Below, piece by piece: positions 14,412 to 63,938 of a stretch of 64,000 bases of DNA; positions within the stretch are counted from its first letter, which is position 1, and each line of letters opens with the position of its first letter. Position numbers and translations under genes: made by a program. The notes beneath the pieces are model-generated. The model did no database searches. It was not told the DNA's origin and worked only from the letters and a program-made list of their open reading frames with translations. This DNA comes from Serinicoccus chungangensis (GTDB taxonomy: Bacteria > Actinomycetota > Actinomycetes > Actinomycetales > Dermatophilaceae), in NCBI RefSeq assembly GCF_001483745.1, contig NZ_LQBL01000028.1, positions 1-64,000 of the forward strand, given 5' to 3'.

Positions 14412-15482
14412 TCAGCGCGGCCCCGGTATGCCGTCCATGGCGGCGATCCGGCGACCCTCCTCGTCGTCGGTCGCGGCGTCGGCGGCGAGCTCCGCCCGAC
14501 GGGCCAGCAGGCGCGCCTCGCGGGTGGCTCGCCGCTCCTCCCACCACTCGTTGACCCGTGCCCTCGGCCCGCGGTACTCCGGCGGGGGCCAGAGCCGGCG
14601 GATGGCGGCGTTGAGCGAGGCGCCCACGAGCACGGCGAAGGCGAGGAAGTAGAGGTAGACCATGAGGATGATCGGCGCGGTGAGCGGGCCGAAGACCGAG
14701 AAGCCGCCGGCGGCGAGCTCGGCCCAGCGCCGGATGAGGACCGAGCTCACCACCCAGAGGAGCACCGTCAGCAGCGCACCCGGCAGGTCCCGCCAGAAGG
14801 GCGACCGGGCCGGGGTCGCCACGTGGAAGAGACCGGTGAGGCTGACGATGCCCAGCAGACCGACCAGGGGCCAGTACAGCTCGACGAGCAGGTCGAGACG
14901 CTGCGGCAGCCAGCGCAGGAGATACCCCGGCCCGATCAGCAGCAGCGGGAGGGTGAGGCCCATGACGACCGTCGAGGCGAGGTATGCCGTGAGCGACAGC
15001 ACCCGGGCGCCGACCGGTCCGCGGTGCCCGCCCTGCCCGTACATGATCGAGATGGCGTCGAGGAAGATGTGCAGCGCCCGCGACCCGGACCACAGCGCGA
15101 CGAGGAACCCGATGGACAGGTAGTCGCCGCGGCGGGCCGTGAGGGTCTGCTGGAAGGTCGGCATGATGACCTGCTCCACGGCCTGCGGGGTGAGGAAGGT
15201 CAACGTCCACTGCTCGAGGGCGCTGCTCATCCGCTCCAGGGTCTGCGGCCCCAGCCACTCCGAGGCGAAGCCGGCACCCGCGACCAGGGCCACCAGCAGG
15301 GGCGGCAGGGACAGCAGGGTGAAGAACGCCGCCTCGGCCGCGAGCCCGGTGGCCCGGTAGCGGAAGGCCACGACGGCGGTCTCGGCGCTCAGACGCACCA
15401 GGGGGACCGCCCCCGGGACGGGTGCGATGACCCGACGCAGACGACGGCGGAACGTCACGTCCACCACAGTCACAGGCGTCAC
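14412..15482 (-). CDS. YihY/BrkB-family inner membrane protein
   Basis: About 356 residues with six predicted membrane helices, typical of the YihY/virulence-factor BrkB family. Visible family segments are TGLAAEAAFFTLLSLPPLLVALVAG, LVALWSGSRALHIFLDAI and TGLFHVATPARSPFWRDLPG, followed by an acidic and basic C-terminal tail. Its role is not established; it is probably a transport or envelope protein rather than the ribonuclease it was once called. I start it at GTG 15482; the frame stays open to 15653 but would then overlap glgX and carry unconserved sequence. It is divergent from glgX. Confidence 0.85.
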   Translation of the reverse strand: MTPVTVVDVTFRRRLRRVIAPVPGAVPLVRLSAETAVVAFRYRATGLAAEAAFFTLLSLPPLLVALVAGAGFASEWLGPQTLERMSSALEQWTLTFLTPQAVEQVIMPTFQQTLTARRGDYLSIGFLVALWSGSRALHIFLDAISIMYGQGGHRGPVGARVLSLTAYLASTVVMGLTLPLLLIGPGYLLRWLPQRLDLLVELYWPLVGLLGIVSLTGLFHVATPARSPFWRDLPGALLTVLLWVVSSVLIRRWAELAAGGFSVFGPLTAPIILMVYLYFLAFAVLVGASLNAAIRRLWPPPEYRGPRARVNEWWEERRATREARLLARRAELAADAATDDEEGRRIAAMDGIPGPR

Positions 15483-15556
15483 GCTAGCCCCATCTGGCAC
15501 AGACGGGCCGGAGGCGTGCCGGTAGCCCGCCGTCGGGCCGGGGGCGTTCCGGCCCG

Positions 15557-15562
15557 TAGAGT
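15557..15562 (+). promoter_or_regulatory. -10 element of glgX
   Basis: TAGAGT lies 66 bp before the glgX ATG, giving a short leader that carries AAGAAAGG as ribosome binding site. A TTG at 15569 is six bases after it and could be an alternative leaderless start. Confidence 0.4.
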
Positions 15563-15628
15563 GGTTTCTTGGTGACGACGCGGTCCTCCTACCGCGACTC
15601 CCACAACCAAGAAAGGCCCCACCACCCG

Positions 15629-17758
15629 ATGGACCTCTGGCCCGGAACGGCATACCCCCTGGGCGCGACCTTCGACGGACGCGGCACCAACTTCGCCCTC
15701 TTCTCCGAGCACGCCACCGCGGTGGACCTGTGCCTGGTCAACGACCGCTCGATCGAGACCACGGTCCCGCTGACCGAGGTCGACGCGCACGTCTGGCACG
15801 GCTACGTGCCCAACTGCCAGCCGGGACAGCGCTACGGCTTCCGGGTCCACGGCCCGTACGAGCCCTCCGAGGGCCACCGCTTCAACCCGCACAAGCTGCT
15901 CCTGGACCCCTACGCCAAGGCGATCGCCGGCCAGATCCGCGGTCACCAGGGGCTGTTCGCCTACGACTTCGGCGACCCCTCGTCCTACAACACCGACGAC
16001 TCGGCGCTGCACACCATGACCTCCGTCGTGGTCAACCCCTTCTTCGACTGGGGCCACGACCGGCCGCCGCAGCACGCCTACCACGACAGCGTCATCTACG
16101 AGGCCCATGTCAAGGGCCTGACGATGAACCACCCTGAGGTGCCGCCAGAGCTCCGCGGCACCTACGCCGGGGTGGCGCACCCGGCCGTCGTCGACCACCT
16201 CACCAGCCTGGGCGTGACGGCGCTCGAGCTGCTGCCCGTGCACCAGTTCGTCGACGACCCGCACCTGCAGGACCAGGGGCTGTCGAACTACTGGGGCTAC
16301 AACACCATCGGCTTCCTCGCACCGCACAACGGCTACTCGGCCTACGGGCACCGTGGCCAGCAGGTGACCGAGTTCAAGTCGATGGTCAAGACCCTGCATG
16401 AGGCGGGCATCGAGGTCATCCTCGACGTCGTCTACAACCACACCGCCGAGGGCAACCACCTCGGGCCGACGCTTTCCTTCCGTGGCATCGACAACGCCAG
16501 CTACTACCGGCTCGTCGACTACGACAAGGCCCACTACTACGACACCACGGGCACCGGCAACAGCCTGCTCATGCGCTCCCCGCACGTCCTGCAGCTCATC
16601 ATGGACAGCCTGCGCTACTGGGTCACCGAGATGCACGTCGACGGCTTCCGCTTCGACCTCGCGGCCACCCTCGCGCGGCAGTTCCACGAGGTCGACAAGC
16701 TGTCGGCCTTCTTCGACATCGTGCAGCAGGACCCGGTCATCTCCCAGGTCAAGCTCATCGCCGAGCCGTGGGACCTGGGGGACGGCGGCTACCAGGTCGG
16801 CAACTTCCCCCCGCTGTGGACCGAGTGGAACGGCAAGTACCGCGACACCGTCCGCGACTACTGGCGCGGGGCGCCGGCGACCATGGGCGAGTTCGCCTCC
16901 CGGATCACCGGCTCCAGCGACCTCTACGAGCACAGCGGCCGTCGCCCCTACGCCTCGATCAACTTCGTCGTCGCCCACGACGGCTTCACCCTGGCCGACC
17001 TCGTGTCCTACAACGAGAAGCACAACGAGGCCAACGGCGAGGGCGGGGCCGACGGCGAGGACCACAACCGGTCGTGGAACTGCGGCGTCGAGGGCCCGAC
17101 CGACGACCCGCAGGTGCGCGCGCTCCGGCTGCGCCAGCAGAAGAACTTCCTGGCCACCCTCATGCTCAGCCAGGGGGTGCCCATGCTGGCCCACGGCGAC
17201 GAGATGGGACGCACCCAGCACGGCAACAACAACGTCTACGCCCAGGACAACGAGCTGGCCTGGATGGACTGGGACCTCGACCCCGACCAGGCCGACCTGC
17301 TCGACTTCACCTCCCGGCTCATCGCGCTGCGCAAGGAGCACCCGGCGTTCCGCCGGCGTCGGTTCTACCTCGGCGACGCCGAGCACGGCGGCCAGAGCGA
17401 CCTCGGCGACATCCACTGGTACTCCCCCGACGGCGAGGTGATGACCGACGAGCGCTGGCACAGCCGCGAGCAGGCGGTCATGGTCTTCCTCAACGGGGAG
17501 GCCATCAGCGAGCGGGACGAGCGGGGCCGCGAGGTGACCGACGACCACTTCCTGCTGCTCTTCAACGGCCACCACGAGGCCGTCGACTTCACCGTGCCGG
17601 ACGGGATGAACACGCCCACCTGGCAGGTCGTCGTCGACACCAGCGGCGACGAGCTCGACGACGACGTGCCCTGGGAGACCGGCGGGACGCACGAGGTGCC
17701 GCCGCGCGCCGTCGTCGTGCTCCAGGCCACGCCGCAGCCCGAGCTCGCGCCCGAGTAG
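15629..17758 (+). CDS. glgX: Glycogen debranching enzyme GlgX
   Basis: A 709-residue GH13 isoamylase-type enzyme that removes short alpha-1,6 branches left by glycogen phosphorylase. An N-terminal CBM48 region (PLGATFDGRGTNFALFSEHA) precedes the TIM barrel. The conserved regions are DVVYNHTAEG, DGFRFDLA (nucleophile Asp near 343), IAEPWDLG (acid Glu near 378) and FVVAHDGFTL (Asp near 450). NYWGYNTIGFLAPH and SYNEKHNEANGE are GlgX-typical. ATG 15629 gives the usual MDLWPG start. It converges on the PPK2 gene, with a strong shared hairpin between them. Confidence 0.96.
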   Translation: MDLWPGTAYPLGATFDGRGTNFALFSEHATAVDLCLVNDRSIETTVPLTEVDAHVWHGYVPNCQPGQRYGFRVHGPYEPSEGHRFNPHKLLLDPYAKAIAGQIRGHQGLFAYDFGDPSSYNTDDSALHTMTSVVVNPFFDWGHDRPPQHAYHDSVIYEAHVKGLTMNHPEVPPELRGTYAGVAHPAVVDHLTSLGVTALELLPVHQFVDDPHLQDQGLSNYWGYNTIGFLAPHNGYSAYGHRGQQVTEFKSMVKTLHEAGIEVILDVVYNHTAEGNHLGPTLSFRGIDNASYYRLVDYDKAHYYDTTGTGNSLLMRSPHVLQLIMDSLRYWVTEMHVDGFRFDLAATLARQFHEVDKLSAFFDIVQQDPVISQVKLIAEPWDLGDGGYQVGNFPPLWTEWNGKYRDTVRDYWRGAPATMGEFASRITGSSDLYEHSGRRPYASINFVVAHDGFTLADLVSYNEKHNEANGEGGADGEDHNRSWNCGVEGPTDDPQVRALRLRQQKNFLATLMLSQGVPMLAHGDEMGRTQHGNNNVYAQDNELAWMDWDLDPDQADLLDFTSRLIALRKEHPAFRRRRFYLGDAEHGGQSDLGDIHWYSPDGEVMTDERWHSREQAVMVFLNGEAISERDERGREVTDDHFLLLFNGHHEAVDFTVPDGMNTPTWQVVVDTSGDELDDDVPWETGGTHEVPPRAVVVLQATPQPELAPE

Positions 17759-17770
17759 ACGGCATACCTG

Positions 17771-17828
17771 CCGGTTCTGGACCTCCGGTTCTGGGGGACG
17801 GGCCCCAGAACCCGAGGTCCAGAACCGG
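17771..17828. terminator. Bidirectional hairpin terminator between glgX and ppk2
   Basis: A 26-bp stem with one mismatch (17771-17796 against 17803-17828) and a six-base loop fills the gap between two convergent genes. Each arm is itself made of two partial copies of CCGGTTCTGG, so the stem arose from a short tandem repeat. Confidence 0.85.
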
Positions 17829-17831
17829 GGG

Positions 17832-18825: not shown

Positions 18826-19461
18826 TCAGCGCAGACGGGTGCGGAGCAGCAGATCACCCTCCCACTCCAGCAGGTGGGTCAGCCGCCCGGTCGGCCCGGA
18901 CAGGGTCGCGCTGCCCGGCAGCAGAAGCTGGCCGTCGCCCCCCGCCAGCACCGGCCGCACGGTCACGCACAGCTCGTCGACCGCCCCGGCACGCACCCAG
19001 GCACCGAAGAGCGCCGGGCCGCCCTCCACGACGACCCGGTCCCAGCCGTGACCGGCGCAGACGTCCAGCACCTGCTCCGGAGTGACGTCCTCCCCGCCGC
19101 CGCTCACCACGTGCACCCCAGGATGGTCGGCGAGCTCGACCGGCACCTCGCCGCTGCGGGTGACGACGACCAGCGCCTTCCCCTCCAGGGGGCCGTAGCC
19201 CTCCTCCCGCGCGGTGCCGGCGCCCACGACCACGGCCTGGGCCCAGCGCCGCAGGGTGGCGAAGGCGGCCGCGTCGCCGTCCGAGCCCTCGTTGAGGCTG
19301 CCGCTGCGTCCGTCGGGTCCGGTGGCGCGCCCGTCGAGGGTGGTGATGAACCCGCCCCGCACCCACCGGCCGGCCGCGCGGTCGGACGGCACGGCATACC
19401 AGTCGTCGAGCTCGGCCTCGCCCAGCGGACCCTGACCGGTCGACACGTCTGCTCGGCTCAC
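18826..19461 (-). CDS. RibD C-terminal/pyrimidine reductase-family protein
   Basis: A 211-residue dihydrofolate-reductase-fold protein of the RibD_C type. WVRGGFITTLDGRATGPDG, AVVVGAGTAREEGYGPL and RVVVEGGPALFGAWVRAGAVDELCVTVRPVL are the family's landmark segments. Similar stand-alone actinobacterial proteins are annotated as pyrimidine reductases of riboflavin synthesis, but their substrate is often unproven. GTG 19461 follows GAGGAGG. It lies 16 bp downstream of the alpha/beta-hydrolase on the same strand, probably in one operon with the ligase. Confidence 0.85.
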   Translation of the reverse strand: MSRADVSTGQGPLGEAELDDWYAVPSDRAAGRWVRGGFITTLDGRATGPDGRSGSLNEGSDGDAAAFATLRRWAQAVVVGAGTAREEGYGPLEGKALVVVTRSGEVPVELADHPGVHVVSGGGEDVTPEQVLDVCAGHGWDRVVVEGGPALFGAWVRAGAVDELCVTVRPVLAGGDGQLLLPGSATLSGPTGRLTHLLEWEGDLLLRTRLR

Positions 19462-20686: not shown

Positions 20687-21780
20687 GACCTGCCCTGCCC
20701 ACCGGGTGGGGTCACCGGGGCGCCGAGCACGTCGTCGAGGGGGAAGTCGACCGGCTGCTCCAGCTGGTCGAAGGTGCACGACCGGGGGTCGCGGTCCTCG
20801 CGCCAGCGCAGGAACTGCGCGGTGTGCCGGAAACGGCCCCCCTCGAGGTAGTCGTAGCGGACCTCGACCACCCGCTCGGGGCGCAGCGGGGTGAACGACA
20901 GGTCCTTGCCCGCGGCCCAGCGCGACCCCTCGCTCTTGCGCGGGGTGTCGGCCTGCAGCTGGCCCGCCCAGTCCCAGGGGTGACCCTCGAAGTCGGTCAC
21001 CCACGGCTGCAGCTCGGCGAAGAGCTCGCGCCGCCGCGCCATGGGGAAGGAGGAGCTGACGCCGACGTGGGCCAGCCGGCCCTCGTCGGTGTAGATCCCC
21101 AGGAGCAGGGAGCCGATCGCCTCCTCGCTGCTCTTGTGGGTGCGGTAGCCGGCGACCACGCAGTCCGCGGTGCGGGTGTGCTTGAGCTTGGTGAGCACCC
21201 GCTTGTTCTGCTGGTAGGGCGCGTCCGGGTCCTTGCCGATGATCCCGTCCAGGCCGGCCCCCTCGAAGTCGACGAACCAGCGCATCGCGAGGTCGAGGTC
21301 GTCGGTGAGCGGCGACAGGTGGACCGAGCCGGCGCTGACGGCGGGGAGCACCGACTCGAGCCGGGCGCGGCGCTCGCGGAACGGCATACCGGTGAGGTCG
21401 TCGTCGCCCAGCGCGAGCAGGTCGAAGGCGACGAAGGCCGCGGGCGTGGACTCGCTGAGCATGCGCACCCGGGACTCGGCCGGGTGGATGCGCTGCCCGA
21501 GGGCATCGAAGTCGAGCCGCTGCCCGCTCGGCGAGGCGAGCACGATCTCGCCGTCCACGACGCAGCGCTCGGGCAGCTCGGCGCGCACGGCCTCGACGAG
21601 CTCGGGGAAGTAGCGGGTCATCGGCTTCTCGTTGCGCGACCCCAGCTCGACCTCGTCGCCGTCGCGGAAGACGACGGAGCGGAAGCCGTCCCACTTCGGG
21701 TCGTAGAGCCACCCGGGCGGCAGCGCCGCGGCTGGCTTGGCGAGCATCGGCGTGACCGGGGGCATGACGGGCAGGTCCAC
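20683..21780 (-). CDS. ATP-dependent DNA ligase
   Basis: A 365-residue single-polypeptide ligase. Adenylation motif I is YDPKWDGFR (Lys nucleophile), with RNEKPMTRYFPEL, DGEIVLAS, FVAFDLLAL, EGAGLDGIIGK (motif IV) and KLKHTRTADCVV (motif V). An OB-fold half ends in FTPLRPERVVEVRYDYLEGGRFRHTAQFLRWRED. This is the LigC/LigD-ligase type of bacterial end-joining. GTG 21780 gives the usual VDLPVMPPVTPML start. A separate LigD-type polymerase lies beyond manA, so ligase and polymerase are split here. No ku gene or nuclease domain is in the window. Confidence 0.92.
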   Translation of the reverse strand: MDLPVMPPVTPMLAKPAAALPPGWLYDPKWDGFRSVVFRDGDEVELGSRNEKPMTRYFPELVEAVRAELPERCVVDGEIVLASPSGQRLDFDALGQRIHPAESRVRMLSESTPAAFVAFDLLALGDDDLTGMPFRERRARLESVLPAVSAGSVHLSPLTDDLDLAMRWFVDFEGAGLDGIIGKDPDAPYQQNKRVLTKLKHTRTADCVVAGYRTHKSSEEAIGSLLLGIYTDEGRLAHVGVSSSFPMARRRELFAELQPWVTDFEGHPWDWAGQLQADTPRKSEGSRWAAGKDLSFTPLRPERVVEVRYDYLEGGRFRHTAQFLRWREDRDPRSCTFDQLEQPVDFPLDDVLGAPVTPPGGQGRS

Positions 21781-21888
21781 AAGCGCCAGTGTGCCCGATG
21801 GCACCGACAGAGGACGGGTATGCCCGTGCGCACCCGCCGGCGGGGGCGCGGCTCGGTGGCGGCCCGGCTCGGCGGCGGTGCGGCTCAG

Positions 21889-23206: not shown

Positions 23207-24283
23207 TCAGGCCTTCTCGACCCGGTTACCGTGCTCGTCCCAGTGCTCGGCGACCTTCTTGGAGGGCTGGACCCGCGGCGGCTCCCCCGGCATCTTGGGG
23301 TGGTCCGGCGGGAAGTTCAGCTCCCCCAGCCCGCGCTCGAGGTCGGCCTCCCACAGCGCGTAGGCTCCGTCGACCACCCCCGGGGACGCGTGCAGGTCCG
23401 CCCAGGCGTCCCCGTGCTCGGCGAGGAAGTCGGGGACGGTGTGCAGGGTGAGGGCCGTGGGGTCGACCTCGGCGAGCTGGTCCCAGGTCACCGGGACCGA
23501 GACGGGGGCACCGGGCAGGATGCGGGTGCTCCACGCGGCGGCCAGGGTGCGGTCGCGCGTGGCCTGGTTGAAGTCGACGAAGATCCGCTCCCCCCGCTCC
23601 TCCTTCCACCACGCCGTGGTCACCAGGTCGGGCCGGCGCCGTTCGAGCTCGCGGGCGAGACCGATGACGGCGTGCCGGACCTCGAGGAACTCCAGCCGCG
23701 GCTCGATCGCGGCGAAGACGTGCACCCCGCGGTTGCCGGTCGTCTTGACGAAGGGCGTGAGCCCCGCCTCCGTCATGACCTCCCGCAGCGCGGTGGCGGC
23801 CTCGACGACGTCGGCGAAGGCGCGCCCGGGCTGGGGGTCCAGGTCGATCCGCAGCTCGTCCGGGTGGTCGTTGTCGCCGGAGCGCACCGGCCACGGGTGC
23901 CAGGTGACGGTGCCCATCTGCGCGGTCCACAGCAGCGTCGCGAGGTCGCCCCCGTCGATGACGAGCTGGGGGTGGCTGCGCCCCGAGGGATAGGTGCAGA
24001 CCGTGGTCCGCGACCAGTCGGGCACCCCCTTCGGCGGGTTCTTGGAGTAGAACTCCTCCCCCTCGATGCCCCCGCGCACCCGTTGCAGGGTGACCGGCCG
24101 GTCGCCCAGCGCGCGGAGCATCGGCTCGGCGACGGCCTCCAGGTATGCCGCGAGGCCGGCCTTGGTGACGGTCGCGCCGTGCGCGGTGGCCGGCCAGACG
24201 ACCTTGTCCGGGCTGGACAGCCGGACGTCACGGACCCGGCCGTCGGGCCCCGGGGCGGTGAGGGTCTGCGCGTCGGCGGGCAT
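23207..24283 (-). CDS. LigD-type polymerase/primase domain protein
   Basis: A 358-residue stand-alone polymerase of the archaeo-eukaryotic primase superfamily, as in the polymerase domain of LigD. Visible motifs are VRLSSPDKVVWP at the N-terminus, EFYSKNPPKGVPDW, the metal-binding RIDLDPQPG (two Asp), KTTGNRGVHVFAAI, and IFVDFNQATRDRTLAAAWSTR. It fills gaps and adds ribonucleotides at broken ends in non-homologous end joining. No ligase or phosphoesterase domain is attached. The C-terminal 50 residues (RVQPSKKVAEHWDEHG) form a tail typical of actinobacterial stand-alone versions. Confidence 0.9.
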   Translation of the reverse strand: MPADAQTLTAPGPDGRVRDVRLSSPDKVVWPATAHGATVTKAGLAAYLEAVAEPMLRALGDRPVTLQRVRGGIEGEEFYSKNPPKGVPDWSRTTVCTYPSGRSHPQLVIDGGDLATLLWTAQMGTVTWHPWPVRSGDNDHPDELRIDLDPQPGRAFADVVEAATALREVMTEAGLTPFVKTTGNRGVHVFAAIEPRLEFLEVRHAVIGLARELERRRPDLVTTAWWKEERGERIFVDFNQATRDRTLAAAWSTRILPGAPVSVPVTWDQLAEVDPTALTLHTVPDFLAEHGDAWADLHASPGVVDGAYALWEADLERGLGELNFPPDHPKMPGEPPRVQPSKKVAEHWDEHGNRVEKA

Positions 24284-24848: not shown

Positions 24849-24874
24849 CGGCATACCTGCTCCCGGTCGTCGGC

Positions 24875-39927: not shown

Positions 39928-41994
<2,067 letters not shown>

Positions 41995-42405: not shown

Positions 42406-42423
42406 GGCCCGACGCCGTCCGTG
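42399..42423 (+). promoter_or_regulatory. Alternative hairpin of the riboswitch expression platform
   Basis: CACGGACGGC (42399-42408) pairs perfectly with GCCGTCCGTG (42414-42423). It reuses the 3' strand of aptamer stem P1, so the two structures exclude each other. Confidence 0.65.
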
Positions 42424-42558
42424 GCTCGTGACCGCGAGGGACGGTCTGGGGCTGGCAGTGGCGACCCGCGACGTCGGCGGGGCACCGCGGCATACCCCTC
42501 TCCCCTCGTCCGTCCCGGGCGCGTCCGCAGCAGGACCGAGTTCACGAGGGGTGAACCG

Positions 42559-49855: not shown

Positions 49856-50791
49856 ATGGCCGACTCCACCTTCAGCCTGACCGCCCCGGACGGCACCGCC
49901 GTGCACGTGAGCCGATGGACGCCGGAGGGCCCTCCCCGGGCCGCCGTCCTCGTCGCGCACGGCATGGTCGAGCACGCCGCGCGCTACGACCACCTCGCCC
50001 GCCTCCTCACCGAGCACGGGTACGCCGTCTACGCCCCCGACCACCGGGGGCACGGGCATACCGTCACCGACGGGCTGCTCGGCCACCTGGGCGACGAGGG
50101 GGGCTTCGCGGCCGTCGTCGACGACCTGCACGCGCTCGGCGAGCAGATCCGGCGGGAGCTGCCGGGGGTGCCGCTGGTACTGCTGGGGCACAGCATGGGC
50201 TCCTTCCTGGCCCGGGCCTACGCGGCGCGCTACGGCGAGCACCTCGCCGCGCTGGTGCTCTCCGGCACCGCGGGTCCCCCGGGGTTGATGGCGTGGCTCG
50301 GGCTGCAGGTGGCCTCGCTGGAGGCGCGGCTGCGGGGTCCTCGCGCGCCGAGCCACCTCATGACGGCGTTGACGATGGGGCCGTACAACGCGCGCTTCCG
50401 ACCGACCCGGACCCGCTCGGACTGGCTCACGCGCGACACCGCGCAGGTCGACGCCTACGAGGCCGACGAGCTGTCCGGCGCGGTCGCGTCGGCCGGCTTC
50501 TACCGCGACCTGCTGACCGGGCTGCGGTGGGTGAGCCAGCCCTCGGTCGCCGCGCAGATGCCGAAGGACCTGCCGGTGCACCTGGTGGCCGGCGAGGTCG
50601 ACCCCGTCGGCGGCGCGGTCGGGACCGAGGAGGTGGCCGCGATGTTCCGCGACGTCGGGGTGCGCGACGTCAGTGTCCGGATCTGGCCCGGCGCCCGGCA
50701 CGAGGTGCTCAACGAGACCAACCGCGACGAGGTCGAGGCCGACCTCGTGGGCTGGCTCGACGCCCGCTTCACCGCGCCCGACGCGTCGTAG
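49856..50791 (+). CDS. Monoacylglycerol-lipase-type alpha/beta-hydrolase
   Basis: A 311-residue serine hydrolase of the lysophospholipase/monoglyceride-lipase type (Hydrolase_4). VLVAHGMVEHAARYDHLA and YAPDHRGHGHT are typical. GHSMGSF is the nucleophile elbow, with Asp in VAGEVDPVGG and His in PGARHEVLNE. No signal peptide is visible. It is alone among the polysaccharide genes, facing a long repeat-filled gap. Confidence 0.9.
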   Translation: MADSTFSLTAPDGTAVHVSRWTPEGPPRAAVLVAHGMVEHAARYDHLARLLTEHGYAVYAPDHRGHGHTVTDGLLGHLGDEGGFAAVVDDLHALGEQIRRELPGVPLVLLGHSMGSFLARAYAARYGEHLAALVLSGTAGPPGLMAWLGLQVASLEARLRGPRAPSHLMTALTMGPYNARFRPTRTRSDWLTRDTAQVDAYEADELSGAVASAGFYRDLLTGLRWVSQPSVAAQMPKDLPVHLVAGEVDPVGGAVGTEEVAAMFRDVGVRDVSVRIWPGARHEVLNETNRDEVEADLVGWLDARFTAPDAS

Positions 50792-51094: not shown

Positions 51095-53470
51095 TCAGCC
51101 GTGGCGCGTGGGCCGGGAGGCCCACAGCGAGGCCGCCATGAGCCTCAGCGGCGCCTCGGGGTCCAGCGCGTGCCGCCAGTCGCCGGGCAGCAGCGTGCGC
51201 GGGGTGCCGTGGCGTCGCCGGCTCCGGGCGAGCCCGAGCAGCCGGGGCGCCGGCACCTGCGGGTCGAGCGCGGCGGCGAGCAGGTCGTGGTCGGCCAGGC
51301 TCAGCGGGTCGGCGCACCCCGGGGCGGCGTCCAGCACCCGCCGCGTCACCCGGGCCAGCTCCACCCGTTCGGCCTCCGTCCACCACCCCGGGTCCGGCCG
51401 GGTGAGGATCGCCCCGAAGACCTGGATCCGCAGCACCTTGGTGCCGACCGCGCGCCGTTGCGCGGCGGTGAGCCGCGCCATCCACGGCAGGCCCCACAGG
51501 GCGTCCGCGGTGAGCAGCTGGTCACGCAGGGGCCGGGGGTCGGAAGTGATCCGGTCGGGGGCGTCGTCGTGCACGAGGTATGCCGGGGCCCGGGTCGCGA
51601 GGAGGACCTCGGCACCGGCATACAGCGCGGTCATCATCGGCAGGTCCTCGCCGACCCGGGCGCCGGGGTGCAGCCGCGTCCCGGGCAGGCGCAGGGCGCC
51701 GCGGGAGATGAGCCCCAGCGGCGCCGAGCGGTAGCTCAGCCGGTCGCGCACCAGCTCGACCCGCCCGCGACCACGGACCGGCCGCGCCGGCGGGGTGGGC
51801 AGGGGTCGGCCGGCCAGGCGCACCGGCGGCAGCACGACCACCGGCTCGTCGGGGTCCCGCCCCTGCGCCGCCTCCAGCCAGCCGGGCAGCGCGCCCGGGG
51901 CGAGTGCGTCGTCGGAGCCCATGATCGACACCCACGGCGCGCTGGCCGCCTCGATCCCGGCGTTGAACGGCCCGCTGGGGCTCGGTATGCCGTCGCTCAC
52001 CACCATCACCCGCACCCGCGGGTCCTCACGCAGGTCGGCCGGCAGCAGGTCCGTGATGTCGGCGGCGGTCAGGTTGTGCGCGACCACGCTGACCCGCACC
52101 GGGAGGTCGCCCGAGCCGTCGAGGACCGACCGCACCGCGCGGGCGACCTGGCGGCGCACGGAGTGCACGGCGACCACCACGTCGACGACGGGGCCGGGGT
52201 CGTCCGCACGCCGGTACCCTGCCGCCCCGCCACCCTCGCCCCGCGCCGCTCCTGCGTCCGCACCGGTCCCCCGGCGCCGGTCGTGGTCACCGATCTGCCC
52301 GCTCCGGTGCCCCACCGCCTCGGCGTAGACGCGCCCGACCCGGTCGGCATACGCCTCCCGGCCGAACCTCTCGACCACCGGCGCCGCGACGTCCTCCGCC
52401 CCGAGCCCGCTGCTCGCAGCCCAGACCGTCTCCACGGTGTCCGCCCATGCCGACGCCGGGGCCCCGGGGGGCACGAGCTCGCCGCTCGGCGGCCCGACGA
52501 ACTCCCGCGGCCCACTGACGTCGCCGACGACGACGGGCCGCCCGGCGGCCAGGGCCTCCGCCGCGGCGAGGCAGAACGTCTCGGCCCGGGTCGGCAGGAG
52601 GAAGACGTCGCCCTCCCCCACCACCTGCTGCACCTCGCCCGGAGGCAGCGCCCCCGAGAGCTCGACCGGTGTGTCGTGGGCTACCGCCTCCCGCTCGACC
52701 TCGTCCCGCAGGACCCCCTCCCCCACCCACGTGAGCCGGGCGTCGACCCCCCGCGCCCGCAGCTCGGCGGTCGCCCGCACGGCGGTGACCGGGTCCTTGC
52801 GCGGGATGAGCCCGCCCACGGCCACGAGCCGCAGCGGACCCCGGTCGCGCAGGCCGGCACCCGGCTCCCGGCGCGGGTGCAGCGCGGGCGGGGCGGTGAC
52901 GATGTTGGGCACGACCCGCACCGGGCCCCGGCGCAGCCGGCGCACCTCCCGCGCGAGGTCCGGGCCGACGACCGCCACCACGTCGGGGCGCGCCAGCAGC
53001 GGGCGTACCACGTGCCGGGCCAGCCGCAACGGTGCGGGGAGGGTCTCCGGCGCCCCCAGCCCTGACCAGTGCTCGGTGTGCACCCAGGGACGGTCGGGTC
53101 GCCGCCTCGCGAACGGCAGGAGGGCCGAGACCGCCATGGTGTGGACCAGGTCGGCCCCCCGCTCCAGCTCGGCGACGCGGCGGGCCGCGCGAGCCACGTG
53201 GTCGGGCCGACGCGGGTCCATCACCAGCTGCTCGACGGGTATGCCGTCCGCCGGCCCCGCGCCGTCCGCACCGCCGCGTGGCACCGGGGCCGGGTCGGCC
53301 GGGTCGGCCGGGTCGGCCAGGTGGGGCGGGTCGGCCAGGTGGGGGGCGACGAGGTGCAGGACGACGACCTCGTGCCGGTCGGCGAGGGCGGCGACGTCGC
53401 GCGCGACGAAGACCCCCGTCGACGGGGACGCCGCGGTCGGGAACCACGTGGTCACGACCAGGACACGCAT
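51095..53470 (-). CDS. Bifunctional glycosyltransferase, GT4 then GT2
   Basis: A 791-residue fusion. The N-terminal half is a GT-B/GT4 enzyme: VLVVTTWFPTAASPSTGVFVARD, LRLVAVGGLIPRKDP, and the donor-site LLPTRAETFCLAAAEALAAG. A short linker leads to a GT-A/GT2 domain: VDVVVAVHSVRRQVARAVRSV, SGPFNAGIEAASAPWVSIMGSDDALA (DD as the metal motif), then a C-terminal helical part. The N-terminal region carries an Ala-Asp-Pro repeat encoded by a 9-bp and 18-bp minisatellite (about 53291-53345). The domain order is the reverse of the fusion at 58533-60908. Confidence 0.88.
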   Translation of the reverse strand: MRVLVVTTWFPTAASPSTGVFVARDVAALADRHEVVVLHLVAPHLADPPHLADPADPADPAPVPRGGADGAGPADGIPVEQLVMDPRRPDHVARAARRVAELERGADLVHTMAVSALLPFARRRPDRPWVHTEHWSGLGAPETLPAPLRLARHVVRPLLARPDVVAVVGPDLAREVRRLRRGPVRVVPNIVTAPPALHPRREPGAGLRDRGPLRLVAVGGLIPRKDPVTAVRATAELRARGVDARLTWVGEGVLRDEVEREAVAHDTPVELSGALPPGEVQQVVGEGDVFLLPTRAETFCLAAAEALAAGRPVVVGDVSGPREFVGPPSGELVPPGAPASAWADTVETVWAASSGLGAEDVAAPVVERFGREAYADRVGRVYAEAVGHRSGQIGDHDRRRGTGADAGAARGEGGGAAGYRRADDPGPVVDVVVAVHSVRRQVARAVRSVLDGSGDLPVRVSVVAHNLTAADITDLLPADLREDPRVRVMVVSDGIPSPSGPFNAGIEAASAPWVSIMGSDDALAPGALPGWLEAAQGRDPDEPVVVLPPVRLAGRPLPTPPARPVRGRGRVELVRDRLSYRSAPLGLISRGALRLPGTRLHPGARVGEDLPMMTALYAGAEVLLATRAPAYLVHDDAPDRITSDPRPLRDQLLTADALWGLPWMARLTAAQRRAVGTKVLRIQVFGAILTRPDPGWWTEAERVELARVTRRVLDAAPGCADPLSLADHDLLAAALDPQVPAPRLLGLARSRRRHGTPRTLLPGDWRHALDPEAPLRLMAASLWASRPTRHG

Positions 53471-53575: not shown

Positions 53576-54646
53576 GTGACCATCCTCTCCGTCGTCGGGG
53601 CCCGCCCGCAGTTCGTCAAGCTCGCGCCGATCGCGCAGGAGTGCGCCACCCGCGGGATCGAGCACGTCATCGTGCACACCGGCCAGCACTACGACCCGAT
53701 GCTCTCCGACGTCTTCTTCACCGACCTCGGCATCCCCCACCCCGATGTCCACCTGGGGGCCGGCTCCGGCAGCCACGGGGTGCAGACCGGGGCGATCCTC
53801 GGCGCGATGGACGCGGTGCTCGAGGAGCACCGCCCGGACTGGGTGCTCGTCTACGGCGACACCAACTCCACCCTGGCCGGGGCGCTGTCGGCGGTGAAGC
53901 TGCACGTGCCCGTCGCCCACCTCGAGGCCGGGCTGCGCTCGTTCAACCGGCGCATGCCCGAGGAGCACAACCGGGTGCTCACCGACCACGCCGCCGACCT
54001 GCTGCTCGCCCCGACGCAGGCCGCCCGGGAGCACCTGGCGGCCGAGGGCCTCGGGTCCCGCACGGTGGTCGTCGGCGACGTCATGATCGACGTCCTGCAC
54101 CGGGTCCGTGACGAGCTGGTGGACGCCGACGCCGTCCTCGACGAGCTCGGTATGCCGTCCGGCGGCTTCTCCCTCGCCACGATCCACCGCGCGGAGAACA
54201 CCGACGACCCCGCCCGGCTGGCCGCGGTCGTCACCGCCCTGCAGGAGGTGGACCACCCGGTCGTGCTGCTCGCACACCCCCGGCTGCGGGCCCGGGCGGC
54301 CGAGCACGGACTGGACCTGGACGGCGGGTCGCTCACCACGCGGGAGCCGCTGGCCTACCCCCGGCTGGTGGGTGCGGTGAGCCGGGCGCGCGGCGTCATC
54401 ACCGACTCCGGCGGCCTGCAGAAGGAGGCCTTCGCCCTGCGGACGCCCTGCACCACGGTCCGCACCGAGACCGAGTGGGTGGAGACCGTGGAGCTGGGCT
54501 GGAACGTCCTCGTCGAGCCCGGCCCCGCCGTGGCTCAGGCCGCCTCGCGGCCGACGCCCGAGCCGACCGACGCCGCACCCTACGGCGACGGCCATGCGGC
54601 CGCCGCGGTGCTGGACGCGCTCCTCGCCCCCCGCCCTGGGCCGTGA
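53576..54646 (+). CDS. wecB: UDP-N-acetylglucosamine 2-epimerase (WecB type)
   Basis: A 356-residue non-hydrolysing epimerase making UDP-ManNAc from UDP-GlcNAc. VVGARPQFVKLAPIA, VHTGQHYDPMLSDVFF, VLVYGDTNSTLAGALSA, VAHLEAGLRSFNRRMPEEHNRVLTDH and DSGGLQKEAF are the conserved blocks. GTG 53576 follows a leaderless -10. The AraC gene overlaps its stop (GTGA). Paired with the WecC-like dehydrogenase, it suggests a ManNAcA-containing surface polymer. Confidence 0.93.
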   Translation: MTILSVVGARPQFVKLAPIAQECATRGIEHVIVHTGQHYDPMLSDVFFTDLGIPHPDVHLGAGSGSHGVQTGAILGAMDAVLEEHRPDWVLVYGDTNSTLAGALSAVKLHVPVAHLEAGLRSFNRRMPEEHNRVLTDHAADLLLAPTQAAREHLAAEGLGSRTVVVGDVMIDVLHRVRDELVDADAVLDELGMPSGGFSLATIHRAENTDDPARLAAVVTALQEVDHPVVLLAHPRLRARAAEHGLDLDGGSLTTREPLAYPRLVGAVSRARGVITDSGGLQKEAFALRTPCTTVRTETEWVETVELGWNVLVEPGPAVAQAASRPTPEPTDAAPYGDGHAAAAVLDALLAPRPGP

Positions 54647-57391: not shown

Positions 57392-58540
57392 TCAGCCACC
57401 CACCCTGGCGGCGAGGGTGTCGACGGCGCGCTCCCAGCCGCGCACCTGCTGCTCCGCGGACAGCTCCCCCGCGGCCGCGTGGGACGCCGCCTTGAAGCGC
57501 GTCACCTTCTCGGCGTCGAGGCCGTCGAGGGTCTCCGCCAGCGCCTGCGCGGTGAAGTCCGGGCTCACCACCCCCAGCCCGTGCCGCCGCACCAGCGCGG
57601 CCATCTCCGGGCTCGGCCCCACCACCAGCGCGAGCCGCCCCTGCACGAAGTCGAAGACCTTGTTGGGCAGCGCCCACAGGTGGTTGAAGGACACCGGCGG
57701 CAGCACGTAGACGCCCACGTCGTGCGCGTTGAGCGTCGCCGGCAGCTCGTGCGGCGCGACCGGCGGGTGGATCCGCACCCGGTCCGAGGCGGCATACCGC
57801 TCCCGCAGCTGCGCGAGGTAGGCCTCGTCGTTCGGCATGAGGTAGAGGTCGAGGGTCATCGGCCCTCGGACGAGCTCCATCGCCTCGAGGATGACGTCGA
57901 GCCGGTGCCGCTGCGCGTTGCCCGAGTGCACCAGACGCAGCGGGTCGCCGACCGGCCCGGGCTCGAGGTCGACGTGCTGCGGGGCGTTGACGACGACGCC
58001 GGCGCGCAGCCCGAAGCGCAGGCGGTACTCCCGGGCGATCCCCTCGCCGACGGTGGTGACCGAGTCGGCCAGCGGGCCGTAGCGGCGCACGAGCCAGCGG
58101 TAGTAGGGCGCGACGAAGGCCCGCCACCGCCACGACTCCTCGTTCTGGCGAGGGTGGTACTCGTGCAGGTCGGCGTGCACGCCGCCGGTCGGCGACAGGT
58201 CGAGCGCGAGCGGCAGGGTGTCGACGTCGTCGGCGAGGACGACGGTGAAGCGCCGCTGCCCGGCCAGCAGCTCGGCCGCGGCCCGCGTCACCGGGGCCCG
58301 ACGGTATGCCGTCTCGAACCGCCGCTGCACGAGCAGCCGGCGGTCCTTGTGCCAGGAGACGACGTCGTCGGGCAGGCGCAGGTGCTCCACGACCCCGTCG
58401 GGGGCCTCGCCGTAGCCGAGGGTCGTCACCGCGTAACGACGGGAGAACAGCGAGATCTGGCGCAGCACGCGGGCGTCGGAGCGCAACCGGCTCCACGCCA
58501 TGATGAGCAGCCGGGGACGGGGGTCGCGCACCTCAGCCAC
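57392..58540 (-). CDS. GT4-type glycosyltransferase
   Basis: A 382-residue GT-B enzyme. RLLIMAWSRLRSDARVLRQI opens the acceptor domain. DDVDTLPLAL, GVHADLHEYHP and SVTTVGEGIAREYRLRFG follow. The donor side shows LRLVHSGNAQRHR, VGVYVLPPVSFNHLWALPNKVFDFVQGRLALVVGP. It is clearly paralogous to the C-terminal half of the next gene (58533-60908), with the same block order. It overlaps that gene by eight bases and starts at GTG 58540. Confidence 0.87.
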   Translation of the reverse strand: MAEVRDPRPRLLIMAWSRLRSDARVLRQISLFSRRYAVTTLGYGEAPDGVVEHLRLPDDVVSWHKDRRLLVQRRFETAYRRAPVTRAAAELLAGQRRFTVVLADDVDTLPLALDLSPTGGVHADLHEYHPRQNEESWRWRAFVAPYYRWLVRRYGPLADSVTTVGEGIAREYRLRFGLRAGVVVNAPQHVDLEPGPVGDPLRLVHSGNAQRHRLDVILEAMELVRGPMTLDLYLMPNDEAYLAQLRERYAASDRVRIHPPVAPHELPATLNAHDVGVYVLPPVSFNHLWALPNKVFDFVQGRLALVVGPSPEMAALVRRHGLGVVSPDFTAQALAETLDGLDAEKVTRFKAASHAAAGELSAEQQVRGWERAVDTLAARVGG

Positions 58541-60908: not shown

Positions 60909-62680
60909 GCCAACCCCGACAGCCGGGCCTGGGTCGCGAACTCCGGGTGCGCCGCCACGACCTGCTCGAAGCTGCCCCGGGCCACGATGGTCCCGTCCTT
61001 CATGAAGCACACCTGGTCGCTGTGGCGGACGGTCGAGAGCCGGTGCGCCACCGCCACCACGGTCACCTGCCCGTGCAGGTCGCGGATGGCCCGGGCGACG
61101 GCGTCCTCGGTGGCGGTGTCCAGCGCCGAGGTCGCCTCGTCGAGGACGAGGACGAGGGGGTCGGCATACAGGGCGCGGGCGATGCCGAGGCGCTGCCGCT
61201 GCCCGCCGGAGAGCGCGAGCCCGCGCTCGGCGACCCGGGTGGAGAGCCCGCCCCGCTCCCCCACCAGGTCGAGCAGCTGCGCTCGCTCCAGCGCGCGGGT
61301 GACCGCTGCCTCGTCGATGTCGTCGCCCCAGGTCAGCGCGACGTTCTGGGCGATGGTGCCGTCGAAGAGGTTGACCTCCTGCGGGACGTAGCCGACCCGG
61401 GCCCGCCAGGCGCCGAGCACCTCCGGCAGCGGCCGGTCGTCCACCCTGATCTCGCCGGCTGACGGCGTGAGCAGGCCCAGCAGCACGTCGACGAGCGTCG
61501 ACTTGCCCGCGCCCGAGGCCCCCACCAGGGCGACCGAGGAGCCCAGCGGCACGTCGAGGTCGACACCGCGCAGGGCCGGCTCGGCCGACCCGGGGTACGA
61601 GAAGGACACCTCGCGCAGCGCCAGCAGCCGCGGGTGGTCCGGCAGCGGCTCGCGGCCCAGCTGCTCCGCCGCGTCGACGTAGCCCTGGGCGTCCCGGATG
61701 TCGGTGATGACCGCCTCCGCGTGCGGCAGCGTCGAGGCGGTCTGCGTGATGATCGACTGGAAGCGGTTGACGCTCGGGATCATCCGCATCCCGGCCACCG
61801 CGAAGAGCGCGATCGCCTCGAAGGCCTGCTGCGCCCCGCCGAGCAGGTAGGCCACGCCCCCGACGATGGCGAAGCCCAGCACCAGCCCGGTGTCGGTGAC
61901 GAACTTGGGCACGGTGTTGAGGAACATGAGGTGCGAGCGGGCCCGGGTCGCGTGCACCCGGTTGGCGTGGACCTCGTCGGCGACCTCCTGCGCCTTGCCG
62001 CGCAGGGTCACCTCCTTGAGCGCGCCCATCATCTCCGTCATCAGCCCCGCCACGACGAAGGAGTAGTCGCGACCCACCCGTCCGGCGACGACCGCGCGGG
62101 GGGAGATGACGACATACATGAGGAGCGCCAGGCCGCCGAGGTAGGCGAAGGTCACGACCGCGGTGACGGGCTGGGCCACGAGCAGCACGACGAGCACCGC
62201 GGCGAAGGTCGCGAGCTCGGCCGGCAGCGACGCGGCGGGCAGCAGCAGCCCGGTGGTGGTGTTGGCGATGCCGACGTCGGCCAGGCGCACCAGCTGGGAG
62301 GTGTTGCGCTTGAGGCGCTCGGTCCACGGGGCGCGGATGTAGGCGCCGAAGAGGCGGTCGCCGATGACGAGGTCGTAGGCCGCGAGCCGCTTCGCCACCG
62401 CCCACTGCAGGGCGACCGTGGCCAGCCCCTTGACGACGACGAGGGCGCAGATGGCCCCCAGCAGCCAGGCGTAGCGGTCCGGGGCGACGGCGCCGAGGAC
62501 CGGCAGCTGCACCGGGTCGCCCTGGATCATCGGGGCGAGGGTGAAGGCCAGCAGCGACAGCGCGAGGATGTCGACGACGGCCAGGATGCTGGAGGCCACG
62601 GCATACCCGATGAGGAACCACCGGGTGCTCGGCGGCAGGAGGGGAAGGAGGCGCCGCAGCGCCCGCAGCAGGCGGATCAC
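60905..62680 (-). CDS. ABC transporter, fused permease and ATPase (flippase-like)
   Basis: A 591-residue half-transporter of the MsbA/PglK type. Six membrane helices lie in the first 320 residues. The nucleotide-binding domain shows Walker A LVGASGAGKSTLVDVLLG, the Q-loop YVPQEVNLF, signature ALSGGQRQRLGIARALY, Walker B LVLVLDEATSALD and the His switch AVAHRLST. Its place directly upstream of two glycosyltransferase genes suggests it exports or flips a lipid-linked glycan. GTG 62680 follows GAGGAGG; a start at 62737 would overlap the divergent gene. Confidence 0.9.
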   Translation of the reverse strand: MIRLLRALRRLLPLLPPSTRWFLIGYAVASSILAVVDILALSLLAFTLAPMIQGDPVQLPVLGAVAPDRYAWLLGAICALVVVKGLATVALQWAVAKRLAAYDLVIGDRLFGAYIRAPWTERLKRNTSQLVRLADVGIANTTTGLLLPAASLPAELATFAAVLVVLLVAQPVTAVVTFAYLGGLALLMYVVISPRAVVAGRVGRDYSFVVAGLMTEMMGALKEVTLRGKAQEVADEVHANRVHATRARSHLMFLNTVPKFVTDTGLVLGFAIVGGVAYLLGGAQQAFEAIALFAVAGMRMIPSVNRFQSIITQTASTLPHAEAVITDIRDAQGYVDAAEQLGREPLPDHPRLLALREVSFSYPGSAEPALRGVDLDVPLGSSVALVGASGAGKSTLVDVLLGLLTPSAGEIRVDDRPLPEVLGAWRARVGYVPQEVNLFDGTIAQNVALTWGDDIDEAAVTRALERAQLLDLVGERGGLSTRVAERGLALSGGQRQRLGIARALYADPLVLVLDEATSALDTATEDAVARAIRDLHGQVTVVAVAHRLSTVRHSDQVCFMKDGTIVARGSFEQVVAAHPEFATQARLSGLA

Positions 62681-62708
62681 GCGGGCGGCCTCCTCATGCG
62701 CCCCATCG

Positions 62709-62720
62709 TAGGCTGCGGGC
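62709..62720 (+). promoter_or_regulatory. Leaderless -10 element of the last glycosyltransferase gene
   Basis: TAGGCT at 62709-62714, six bases before GTG 62721. Confidence 0.5.
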
Positions 62721-63938
62721 GTGGTCTCCCCCGTCAACCGCCTGCGGCGCCTCGCCTGGCGCGGCCTGGCGGCGCTGCCCGCGCCGGTGCGCGAGGTGGC
62801 GACCCTGCCGGTGCGTCGGCGCGCCGACGCCGAGCTGCGGGCCCTCGCCCCGATGCCGGCGGCCGAGCGCCGGCTCTACCTCGGGCCGTGGAACACCGCC
62901 GGACAGGCGTATGCCTGGGCGCGCGCCGTCGAGCGTCACCTGCCGGGGGTGGCGGCGCAGAACCTCGCGGCCCACCGCTCGGCGGCGGCCGGGACCTTCC
63001 GCTACCCCGCCGACCAGGCGCTCTCCGCGCTCGCCCAGCGCGGTCACGTGCGCGAGATCCACGGGGCGCGGGTGCTCCGCGAGGCCACGCACGTGGTCTT
63101 CGAGTCCGGCCGCCCGGTGCTCGCCGACCTCCACGCCGGGTCGATGCTGGCCGACGTGCCCGAGCTCGAGGCGGCCGGCATCCGGCACGCGGTGCTCTTC
63201 CACGGCAGCGAGATCCGGGACCTGCGGGCGCACGCCGAGGCCTACGCGCACAGCCCGTTCCACGGCCCCTGGGACGACTACCTGCGCACGCTGCAGGGCG
63301 TCGTCGAGCGCAACAGGCGCGACCTCGCGGACTACGCGGGGCCGGTGCTCGTCTCGACCCCGGACCTGCTCGACGTGCTGCCCGGTGCCACGTGGCTGCC
63401 GCTGGTCGTCGAGGTCGAGCGGTTCGCGGGGGCGGCCGGGGCGCCGGTCCTGGAGCGTCCGCGCCCTGTGGTGCTGCACGCGCCGTCCAACCCGCGGCTC
63501 AAGGGCACCGAGGCGGTGGAACGGGTGCTGGAGGGTATGCAGGCCGCCGGCCTGGTGGAGTACCGCCGCCTCACCGGGGTGCCGCACGCGCGGATGGCGG
63601 CGTTCGTGGGCGACGCGGACGTCGTCGTCGACCAGGTGGTCCTCGGCAACCCCGGGGTGCTGCTGGCCGAGACCCTCGCGGCCGGGCGGCTGGCGGTGGC
63701 GCACCTCGCGCCGGGCGTGCGTGAGCGCATGGCGCGGTCCGACCGCGACCGCGGCGGCGACGGGGTCGTGCCGGTGCTCGACGCCGACCCCGACACCCTC
63801 GAGGAGGTGCTGCGGGGCGTGCTCGACGAGCGGGGACGGCATACCGAGCTGGCGGCGCGGGGACCCGCCTGGGCGCGCCGTCACCACGACGGCACCCGCG
63901 CCGCCGAGGTCCTCGACCGCGTCCTCCTCTCGACCTGA
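62721..63938 (+). CDS. GT4-like glycosyltransferase
   Basis: A 405-residue protein with a GT-B fold: HAVLFHGSEIRDL and VLVSTPDLLDVLPGATWLPLVVEVE in the acceptor side, PVVLHAPSNPRLKGTEAVERVLEG and ADVVVDQVVLGNPGVLLAETLAAG in the donor side. The family is a distant GT4 type; the sugar is unknown. GTG 62721 follows a leaderless -10. It is divergent from the ABC transporter and belongs to the same polysaccharide locus. Positions 63939-64000 hold no gene within the window. Confidence 0.83.
   Translation: MVSPVNRLRRLAWRGLAALPAPVREVATLPVRRRADAELRALAPMPAAERRLYLGPWNTAGQAYAWARAVERHLPGVAAQNLAAHRSAAAGTFRYPADQALSALAQRGHVREIHGARVLREATHVVFESGRPVLADLHAGSMLADVPELEAAGIRHAVLFHGSEIRDLRAHAEAYAHSPFHGPWDDYLRTLQGVVERNRRDLADYAGPVLVSTPDLLDVLPGATWLPLVVEVERFAGAAGAPVLERPRPVVLHAPSNPRLKGTEAVERVLEGMQAAGLVEYRRLTGVPHARMAAFVGDADVVVDQVVLGNPGVLLAETLAAGRLAVAHLAPGVRERMARSDRDRGGDGVVPVLDADPDTLEEVLRGVLDERGRHTELAARGPAWARRHHDGTRAAEVLDRVLLST

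What the first reader, a model, noticed from the sequence alone, without database searches (positions are those of the whole stretch)
14425..63845. HIP1-like octamer GGCATACC/GGTATGCC recurs in the core and is absent from the first 14 kb
By eye I count 28 exact copies on either strand between 14425 and 63845, for example at 14425, 14981, 15649, 17761, 19393, 21383, 24142, 26202, 34589, 37823, 43715, 48085, 51577, 54149, 57791, 62600 and 63838, plus about a dozen one-mismatch copies. At roughly 72% GC (my estimate) about two are expected in 50 kb. Inside genes it brings in codons that are otherwise avoided (TAT, GCA, ATA, GGT, CAT); nrdA uses TAT-GCC in the octamer and TAC two codons on. Selection or a copying process seems to act on the DNA word itself. 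I see none in 1-14,400. Both orientations are mixed.
Basis: partly seen in the sequence, partly recalled or inferred. Interest (0 to 1): 0.75.

Follow-up and report, generated by a model that had tools for sequence, protein, structure and literature searches.

The report
Family-wide repeated DNA word with dialects
A Serinicoccus bacterium carries the same eight-letter DNA word about 1,400 times and many of its relatives carry it or altered versions; the pattern looks like a self-recognition signal of the kind some bacteria use when taking up DNA, but its reader and function are not yet shown.

Summary
The enrichment is real. The window has 30 exact GGCATACC/GGTATGCC, 1-2 expected; one lies at 6586, so the first 14 kb is poor, not empty. 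The genome has 1375 copies, the reversed word 18. The host is a Serinicoccus; the full word is about RCGGCATACM. It lies in genes and between them, on both strands, in all frames, and overrides codon choice: Tyr is TAT in 68 of 76 fitting contexts, in 50 of 2624 with neither neighbour. Sites are kept between species above background. It is high in 58 of 99 family genomes, 32 of 53 genera, and not in 192 sampled genomes outside. Some relatives show altered words. It is not palindromic, has no strand bias, and none of three methyltransferase families searched in 31 genomes covers all carriers: not HIP1, and unlike Chi or KOPS. Best reading: a DNA-uptake or self-recognition word working like Neisseria DUS, in Gram-positive bacteria.

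The parts
6586..6593 (-). word (GGTATGCC on + strand), the only copy in 1-14,400; inside a ClpP-like ORF 6391-7011
14425..14432 (-). word copy
14981..14988 (-). word copy
15649..15656 (+). word copy
17761..17768 (+). word copy, outside the genes called by my simple model
19393..19400 (+). word copy, outside the genes called by my simple model
21383..21390 (+). word copy
21817..21824 (-). word copy
24142..24149 (-). word copy, in a LigD primase-polymerase gene (23207-24283)
24850..24857 (+). word copy, outside the genes called by my simple model
26202..26209 (-). word copy
32404..32411 (+). word copy
34589..34596 (+). word copy
36222..36229 (+). word copy
37823..37830 (+). word copy
40229..40236 (+). 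word copy
41818..41825 (+). word copy
42489..42496 (+). word copy in the ribonucleotide reductase gene (42304-45156)
43715..43722 (-). word copy in the ribonucleotide reductase gene; Tyr is TAT inside the word and TAC three codons on
44286..44293 (+). word copy in the ribonucleotide reductase gene
48085..48092 (-). word copy
50055..50062 (+). word copy
51577..51584 (-). word copy
51984..51991 (-). word copy
53238..53245 (-). word copy
54149..54156 (-). word copy
57791..57798 (+). word copy
58303..58310 (-). word copy
62600..62607 (+). word copy
63838..63845 (+). word copy
1..14400 (.). word-poor stretch of lower GC with an IS481-type transposase (4145-5161); probably accessory DNA (inference)

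Best explanation
The word is a self-recognition signal on double-stranded DNA and most likely works as a DNA uptake sequence: a DNA-binding receptor of the competence machinery prefers RCGGCATACM, DNA that carries it is taken up and recombined more often, and this bias (with or without selection for species-specific uptake) piles up the word by point mutation wherever the protein tolerates it. Drift of the receptor's specificity gives the altered words of sister genera. Shown here: the word, its enrichment, its independence of strand, frame and codon usage, its conservation, its range in the family, and altered words in some relatives. Inferred: that natural transformation is active, that its receptor reads the word, and that the receptor sits on a Tad/Flp pilus or at ComEA.
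For: 1375 copies, about one per 2.6 kb. No strand bias: 991 sites in 59 blocks of 10 genomes (blocks of up to 50 kb, each genome with its own word core, counts), majority strand 0.58; 0.594 expected at random, 0.753 under a 75:25 bias. 176 of 209 sites lie in genes, 91 on the coding strand and 85 opposite, in all frames. DNA-level force over codon choice and conservation. One-mismatch forms of the 10-mer also exceed expectation (148 against 37.2), two-mismatch forms little (433 against 379.4), the graded drop that PMC1939737 (passages) describes for uptake words and also for other frequent oligonucleotides. Of 27 listed unshared sites, 23 differ from the relative without a gap. Altered words over a synonymous-codon null: CGNCATAC in G003, AGCGGCATAC in G015, CGGCATCC in G026, CCGCATCG in G057. 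Word status is clustered on a 30-genome tree (5 changes; 10.0 in shuffles; the tentative altered words counted as word). Neisseriaceae have eight dialects, and five genomes of the family have no obvious one (section 'DUS dialects' of PMC3630211). Word pairs under 60 bp apart are inverted in 22 of 25 cases in five genomes. The host has ComEC, a ComEA-like SLBB-HHH protein and Tad loci; Micrococcus luteus needs two tad loci for transformation and has comEA and comEC (abstract and passages of PMC4322843).
Against: No uptake experiment; whether these bacteria are naturally competent is unknown (in one search the 15 papers listed hold 'natural transformation' 0 times). ComEC is in 95 of 99 family genomes, wordless ones included, and T2SSF in 96 of 99, so their presence explains nothing. 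Known or predicted DUS/USS receptors are minor pilins of type IVa pili, but PilM is lacking in 94 of 99 genomes, the host among them. The Tad locus A association (high: 45 with, 3 without; low: 27 with, 10 without; genomes at least 90% complete; Fisher p=0.013) mostly vanishes on a tree: independent contrasts agree in 0-1 of 4. G017 and G092 carry the word without locus A; G047 has lost most of it. 28 of 99 genomes have locus A and little of this exact word. Close pairs, intergenic excess and depletion in low-GC DNA would also fit other readers.
Confidence: 0.5

Rival explanations
1. Chi-like signal: the word tells a double-strand-break enzyme (RecBCD, AddAB or AdnAB type) that DNA is self and switches it from degradation to recombination.
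For: Similar length and copy number (recalled for Chi); a version with one free position in G003 (CGNCATAC); few copies in low-GC stretches (4 in 28 kb below 68% GC). The patchy range could follow a patchy nuclease.
Against: No orientation bias in 59 blocks of 10 genomes, whereas Chi in E. coli is strongly oriented with replication (recalled).
Confidence: 0.18
2. HIP-like word: methylation of the word plus biased mismatch repair creates and keeps it, as proposed for HIP1.
For: HIP words are also highly iterated and are replaced by alternate words in some relatives (abstract of PMC4390886). One relative, G024, has a palindromic 10-mer GGCGTACGCC at 13 against 2.1 in coding DNA. Several carriers have PF00145 genes.
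Against: Not a palindrome in the host. Host: no PF01555, no PF00145, one 22-bit PF02384 match. Among 31 of the 99 genomes searched, none of the three families covers all carriers: G032, G039, G042, G065, G078, G092 and G098 lack both PF01555 and PF02384 (each has PF00145), while G000, G022, G052, G003, G015, G026 and G057 lack PF00145. Other methyltransferase families (D12, Eco57I, PglX types) were not searched.
Confidence: 0.12
3. A chromosome-organising or segregation protein binds the word all over the chromosome.
For: Roughly random spread (CV of spacing 1.12 in 280 kb) and a slight excess between genes (33 of 209, 23.5 expected, p=0.048).
Against: No orientation bias, unlike KOPS (recalled). 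Absence of the word in several genera and its altered forms are unlike a core segregation signal (inference).
Confidence: 0.12
4. No reader: mutation bias, codon usage or amino-acid pairs make the word common.
For: The CGGCGTAC-like forms in G040, G069, G024 and in Nocardioidaceae (54 against 17.2) may be of this kind; unrelated words reach 2-4 fold over the same null and a few rare ones more.
Against: For the host's word, synonymous shuffles give 7.5 where 175 are seen; the similarly GC-rich relative G083 (74% GC in 40 kb) lacks it; sites are conserved.
Confidence: 0.02

Closest known systems
DNA uptake sequence (DUS) of Neisseriaceae and uptake signal sequence (USS) of Pasteurellaceae
   Same: About 9-12 bp, not palindromic, of the order of a thousand or more copies, dialects among genera and some relatives without one (PMC3630211 section). 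Here also: both orientations equal, many inside genes, close pairs inverted.
   Different: Gram-positive Actinomycetota; no type IVa pilus marker PilM; uptake and receptor unproven; lower density (0.39 per kb).
HIP1 (GCGATCGC) of cyanobacteria
   Same: Highly iterated word, replaced or nearly absent in some relatives (abstract of PMC4390886).
   Different: Not a palindrome; no methyltransferase common to all carriers in the three families searched in 31 genomes.
Chi sites
   Same: Short non-palindromic word of similar number (recalled).
   Different: No strand bias; a role in recombination could not be tested.
KOPS / AIMS type polar words (recalled)
   Same: Short words spread over the chromosome.
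   Different: Those are strand-polarised; this is not.

Membership tests
DUS/USS uptake sequences | one short word far above Markov expectation over the whole genome | tested here: met
   1375 copies, reversed control 18; 209 against 10.5 in 604 kb (order 3)
DUS/USS uptake sequences | no strand preference | tested here: met
   59 blocks, 991 sites
DUS/USS uptake sequences | dialects that follow the phylogeny | tested here: inconclusive
   altered words found: strong in G003 and G015, fair in G026, moderate in G057, tentative in G040, G069, G024; word presence clustered on a one-gene tree with 7 open forks of 27
DUS/USS uptake sequences | word-bearing DNA is preferentially taken up | not testable with these tools
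   needs transformation assays
DUS/USS uptake sequences | competence genes in the genome | tested here: met
   ComEC and a ComEA-like SLBB-HHH protein; but ComEC is also in wordless relatives
DUS/USS uptake sequences | type IVa pilus whose minor pilin is the receptor (as in the known or predicted cases) | tested here: not met
   PilM_2 lacking in 94 of 99 genomes, the host among them; Tad/Flp loci instead. Therefore not filed as a DUS
HIP1 | palindrome | tested here: not met
   sequence of the word
HIP1 | cognate methyltransferase | tested here: inconclusive
   none common to all carriers in three Pfam families over 31 genomes; other families not searched
Chi | orientation with replication | tested here: not met
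Chi | recognised by a RecBCD/AddAB type enzyme, stimulates recombination | not tested

The most novel reading that the evidence does not exclude
This is a DNA uptake language of Gram-positive bacteria, for which I found no precedent in the paper searches made: an ancestral word of one actinobacterial family, split into genus dialects, read by a receptor on a Tad/Flp (not type IVa) competence pilus or at ComEA, so that sequence-specific transformation arose independently of Neisseriaceae and Pasteurellaceae.
Probability: 0.4. Interest if true: 0.92.

Novelty: new variant of a known kind. Interest (0 to 1): 0.77.

Why it matters
A passage of PMC4390886 names three classes of highly iterated genome words: Chi, uptake words and HIP. 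A non-palindromic, unoriented word with altered forms in relatives, high in 32 of 53 sampled genera of one actinobacterial family, fits none of them completely. If it is an uptake word, sequence-specific DNA uptake also evolved in Gram-positive bacteria and with another kind of pilus, and the family offers many natural variants with which to find the receptor. It would also suggest that DNA carrying the word could be used to transform these bacteria.

Tried and rejected
Ranking by the highest-order Markov model hid the word because its sub-words are themselves enriched; order 3 or lower shows it.

Chi/KOPS: disfavoured for lack of strand bias. Methyltransferase (HIP) explanation: weakened, three families in 31 of 99 genomes. 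ComEC as discriminator: in 95 of 99. T4aP: PilM in 5 of 99, four of the five matches partial. T2SSF as discriminator: in 96 of 99. Tad locus A: by my reading of gene spacing it was in 8 of 8 word-bearing and 0 of 4 wordless genomes that I had picked, but over 99 genomes it has 3 exceptions among 48 well-covered high genomes, and 27 of 37 low ones have it (by genus 28 high with, 0 without, 14 low with, 6 without, p=0.003); on a tree of 30 chosen genomes the joint absence is mostly one clade. I do not claim it as the machine. In G047 TadA, TadB and most of TadC are missing next to a low-GC stretch while the pilin genes remain.

CGGCGTAC-like forms in G040, G069, G024: about 2.5-4 fold over the codon null, but Nocardioidaceae show 3.1 fold and unrelated words 2-4 fold: tentative. 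CCGCATCG in G057 (115 against 24.2) is only moderately above that background. G015's word is embedded in a longer repeat found largely between genes (20 of 42) and may be partly a REP-like element.

The first tree used wrong reading frames for 8 of 30 rows and was discarded; one search replaces it. Alternating orientation of neighbouring sites (119 of 206, p=0.03) and intergenic excess (33 of 209, p=0.048) are weak. Stretches of G071 and G043 fetched (L113-L116) were not analysed. Paper searches; one search found 596 papers with the octamer as letters anywhere, of which I saw 20 listed, none about this. In the main texts of PMC4322843 and PMC12849477 on M. luteus transformation 'uptake sequence' occurs 0 times.

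Classification (counts typed): high = at least 120 copies and at least 3 times the reversed control. G015 and G063 (137, 140) count as high; G048 and G081 (115, 118), G054 and G064 (142, 122) as low. The 14 of 99 genomes under 90% complete were left out of the main test and included in a second (p=0.002).
Full report
OBSERVATION. The window (71.8% GC) holds 30 exact copies of GGCATACC or its complement, 29 of them from 14425 on; Markov models of order 0-3 expect 0.95-2.14. One copy lies at 6586, so the first 14.4 kb is poor (1 against 5.6 expected, P=0.025), not empty. It has lower GC, 62-69%, and an IS481-type transposase at 4145-5161. In the whole assembly (3,556,988 bases, 33 contigs) there are 698 + 677 copies, and 8 + 10 of the word read backwards.

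HOST. The best protein matches of the window's ribonucleotide reductase (PF02867, PF00317, PF03477) are Serinicoccus (96%, L009 and L010; 88%, L028). NCBI places the genus in Ornithinimicrobiaceae, Micrococcales.

THE WORD. In 344 kb the octamer is usually preceded by C (96 of 119), and before that by A or G (90 of 119). CGGCATAC occurs 136 times, GGCATACC 119, GGCATACA 24 against 2.1 expected: about RCGGCATACM. In 604 kb GGCATACC occurs 209 times (10.5 expected, order 3). 176 of 209 sites lie in called genes, 91 on the coding strand and 85 against it, in all frames; 33 lie outside (23.5 expected). Gene calls are from a simple coding model of mine.

A FORCE ON DNA. With proteins and codon usage fixed by shuffling synonymous codons, 175 coding copies are seen and 7.5 expected. 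Tyr is TAT in 68 of 76 cases between a codon ending GG and GCC, in 75 of 324 before GCC alone, in 17 of 119 after GG with no Ala codon following, and in 50 of 2624 with neither. Ile is ATA in 28 of 57 cases between GGC and a CC codon, and in 7 of 4237 with neither. 68 of 218 TAT and 28 of 47 ATA codons lie wholly inside the word. Sites are kept in relatives in 32 of 45 cases (G047, main stretch; words made of the same letters 37.7%), 9 of 14 (L028; 42%), 12 of 15 (L010; 61%), 8 of 11 (L009; 71%), and 1 of 3 and 1 of 1 in two short G047 stretches. Rare codons (TAT, ATA, GCA, CAT) are kept in G047 in 32 of 42 cases inside the word and 36 of 163 outside (p=1.3e-10). Of 27 listed unshared sites 23 differ without a gap. 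Copies with one mismatch exceed the null 4.0 fold for the 10-mer, with two 1.14 fold; a reversed control 9-mer shows nothing. In 2-kb pieces below 68% GC there are 4 copies in 28 kb; density is 0.25-0.44 per kb at higher GC.

RANGE. In 99 genomes of the family (53 genera) the count runs from 6 to 2228; 58 genomes and 32 genera are high by my threshold. Of 197 genomes sampled over the class, 192 lie outside the family; the largest count there is 408 in 7.5 Mb with 146 reversed.

ALTERED WORDS. From 20 genomes I read 40 kb each, and 80 kb more from 10 of them. Over the synonymous null these show CGNCATAC in G003 (four versions, 6.7-11.6 fold), AGCGGCATAC in G015 (14 against 0.4), CGGCATCC in G026 (83 against 15.1) and CCGCATCG in G057 (115 against 24.2). 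The last two are the top-ranked words of their genomes, but unrelated words reach 2-4 fold over this null, so G057 is moderate. CGGCGTAC-like forms in G040, G069, G024 are tentative because Nocardioidaceae show a similar excess. G041 and G083 (120 kb each) show none of the tested words; seven genomes read to 40 kb only (G014, G088, G081, G010, G058, G059, G084) gave no clear related word. On a tree of 30 chosen genomes from one topoisomerase gene, word presence (tentative forms counted as word) needs 5 changes against 10.0 in shuffles, 1 of 500 shuffles as low; 7 of 27 inner branches are open.

WHAT IT IS NOT. Strand: 991 sites in 59 blocks of 10 genomes show no bias (majority strand 0.58; 0.594 at random, 0.753 under a 75:25 bias, counts). 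This speaks against Chi-like and KOPS-like words. The word is not palindromic; the host lacks PF01555 and PF00145 and has one 22-bit PF02384 match, and none of these three families covers all carriers among 31 genomes. This speaks against HIP1, which is linked to methyltransferases (PMC4390886, abstract and passages). Spacing is about random (CV 1.12 in 280 kb).

HOW IT MAY WORK. The best fit is an uptake word. Neisseriaceae carry eight dialects, and five genomes of the family none that is obvious (PMC3630211, abstract and the section on dialects). Uptake words are thought to accumulate by point mutation under uptake bias, with a steep drop with mismatches (PMC1939737, passages). Word pairs under 60 bp apart are mostly inverted (22 of 25 in five genomes). 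The host has ComEC, a ComEA-like protein and Tad loci. In the actinobacterium Micrococcus luteus two tad loci are needed for transformation (PMC4322843, abstract and passages; review PMC6370729, passages). The known or predicted readers elsewhere are minor pilins of type IV pili (ComP in Neisseria; ComN/PpdA predicted in Pasteurellaceae, PMC12616744, passages), but PilM was not found here, so a reader would have to be of another kind.

A LEAD THAT DID NOT HOLD UP FULLY. One Tad locus ('A', host C2:40351-45003) was, by my reading, in 8 of 8 word-bearing and 0 of 4 wordless genomes picked first. Over 99 genomes (statistics) it is in 45 of 48 high and 27 of 37 low genomes at least 90% complete (p=0.013). 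Of the 3 exceptions, G047 shows a locus cut down next to a low-GC stretch; G017 and G092 belong to one genus, whose third sampled member G065 has it. On the tree the joint absence is mostly one clade, and independent contrasts agree in 0-1 of 4. It remains a candidate only.

VERDICT. A real, strong word acting at DNA level across much of a family, with altered forms in relatives. It works most like an uptake or self-recognition signal (confidence 0.5); it is not filed as a DUS because uptake is untested and the known pilus type was not found.

Noticed in passing
G015 stretches (L144, L145, L210-L213): The word sits in a longer repeat, about GCYCAGCGGCATACGGC, largely between genes (20 of 42 copies) and as inverted pairs 22 or 52 bp apart; 8 of the 19 classified intergenic copies lie between convergent genes, like terminator hairpins.
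   Followed up: partly
L283 (G047:C2:110001-122000), 1-6000: A low-GC stretch without the word (61% GC, 0 copies in 6 kb) adjoins a Tad locus that has lost TadA, TadB and most of TadC.
   Followed up: partly
named Nocardioidaceae loci L015, L019, L020, L023, L026, L027: CGGCGTAC is about three times above a synonymous-codon null (54 against 17.2); it may be an older relative of the word or a codon-pair effect.
   Followed up: partly
host stretches, 604 kb (window, L097-L110, L122-L134): Neighbouring words alternate in orientation slightly more than chance (119 of 206, p=0.03); the excess is mostly in C2 (58 of 88), not in the window's part (18 of 40).
   Followed up: no
host word, reverse complement GGTATGCCGT: It shares the 7-mer ATGCCGT with the 12-mer form of the Neisseria DUS as I recall it (the 10-mer GCCGTCTGAA is given in PMC6370729); probably chance.
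   Followed up: no
G024 stretches (L164, L165, L202-L205): A palindromic 10-mer GGCGTACGCC is enriched: 13 in coding DNA against 2.1; 15 places in 120 kb (counted as 30 on both strands against 1.6).
   Followed up: no
window 4145-5161: IS481-type transposase in the word-poor end of the contig.
   Followed up: no
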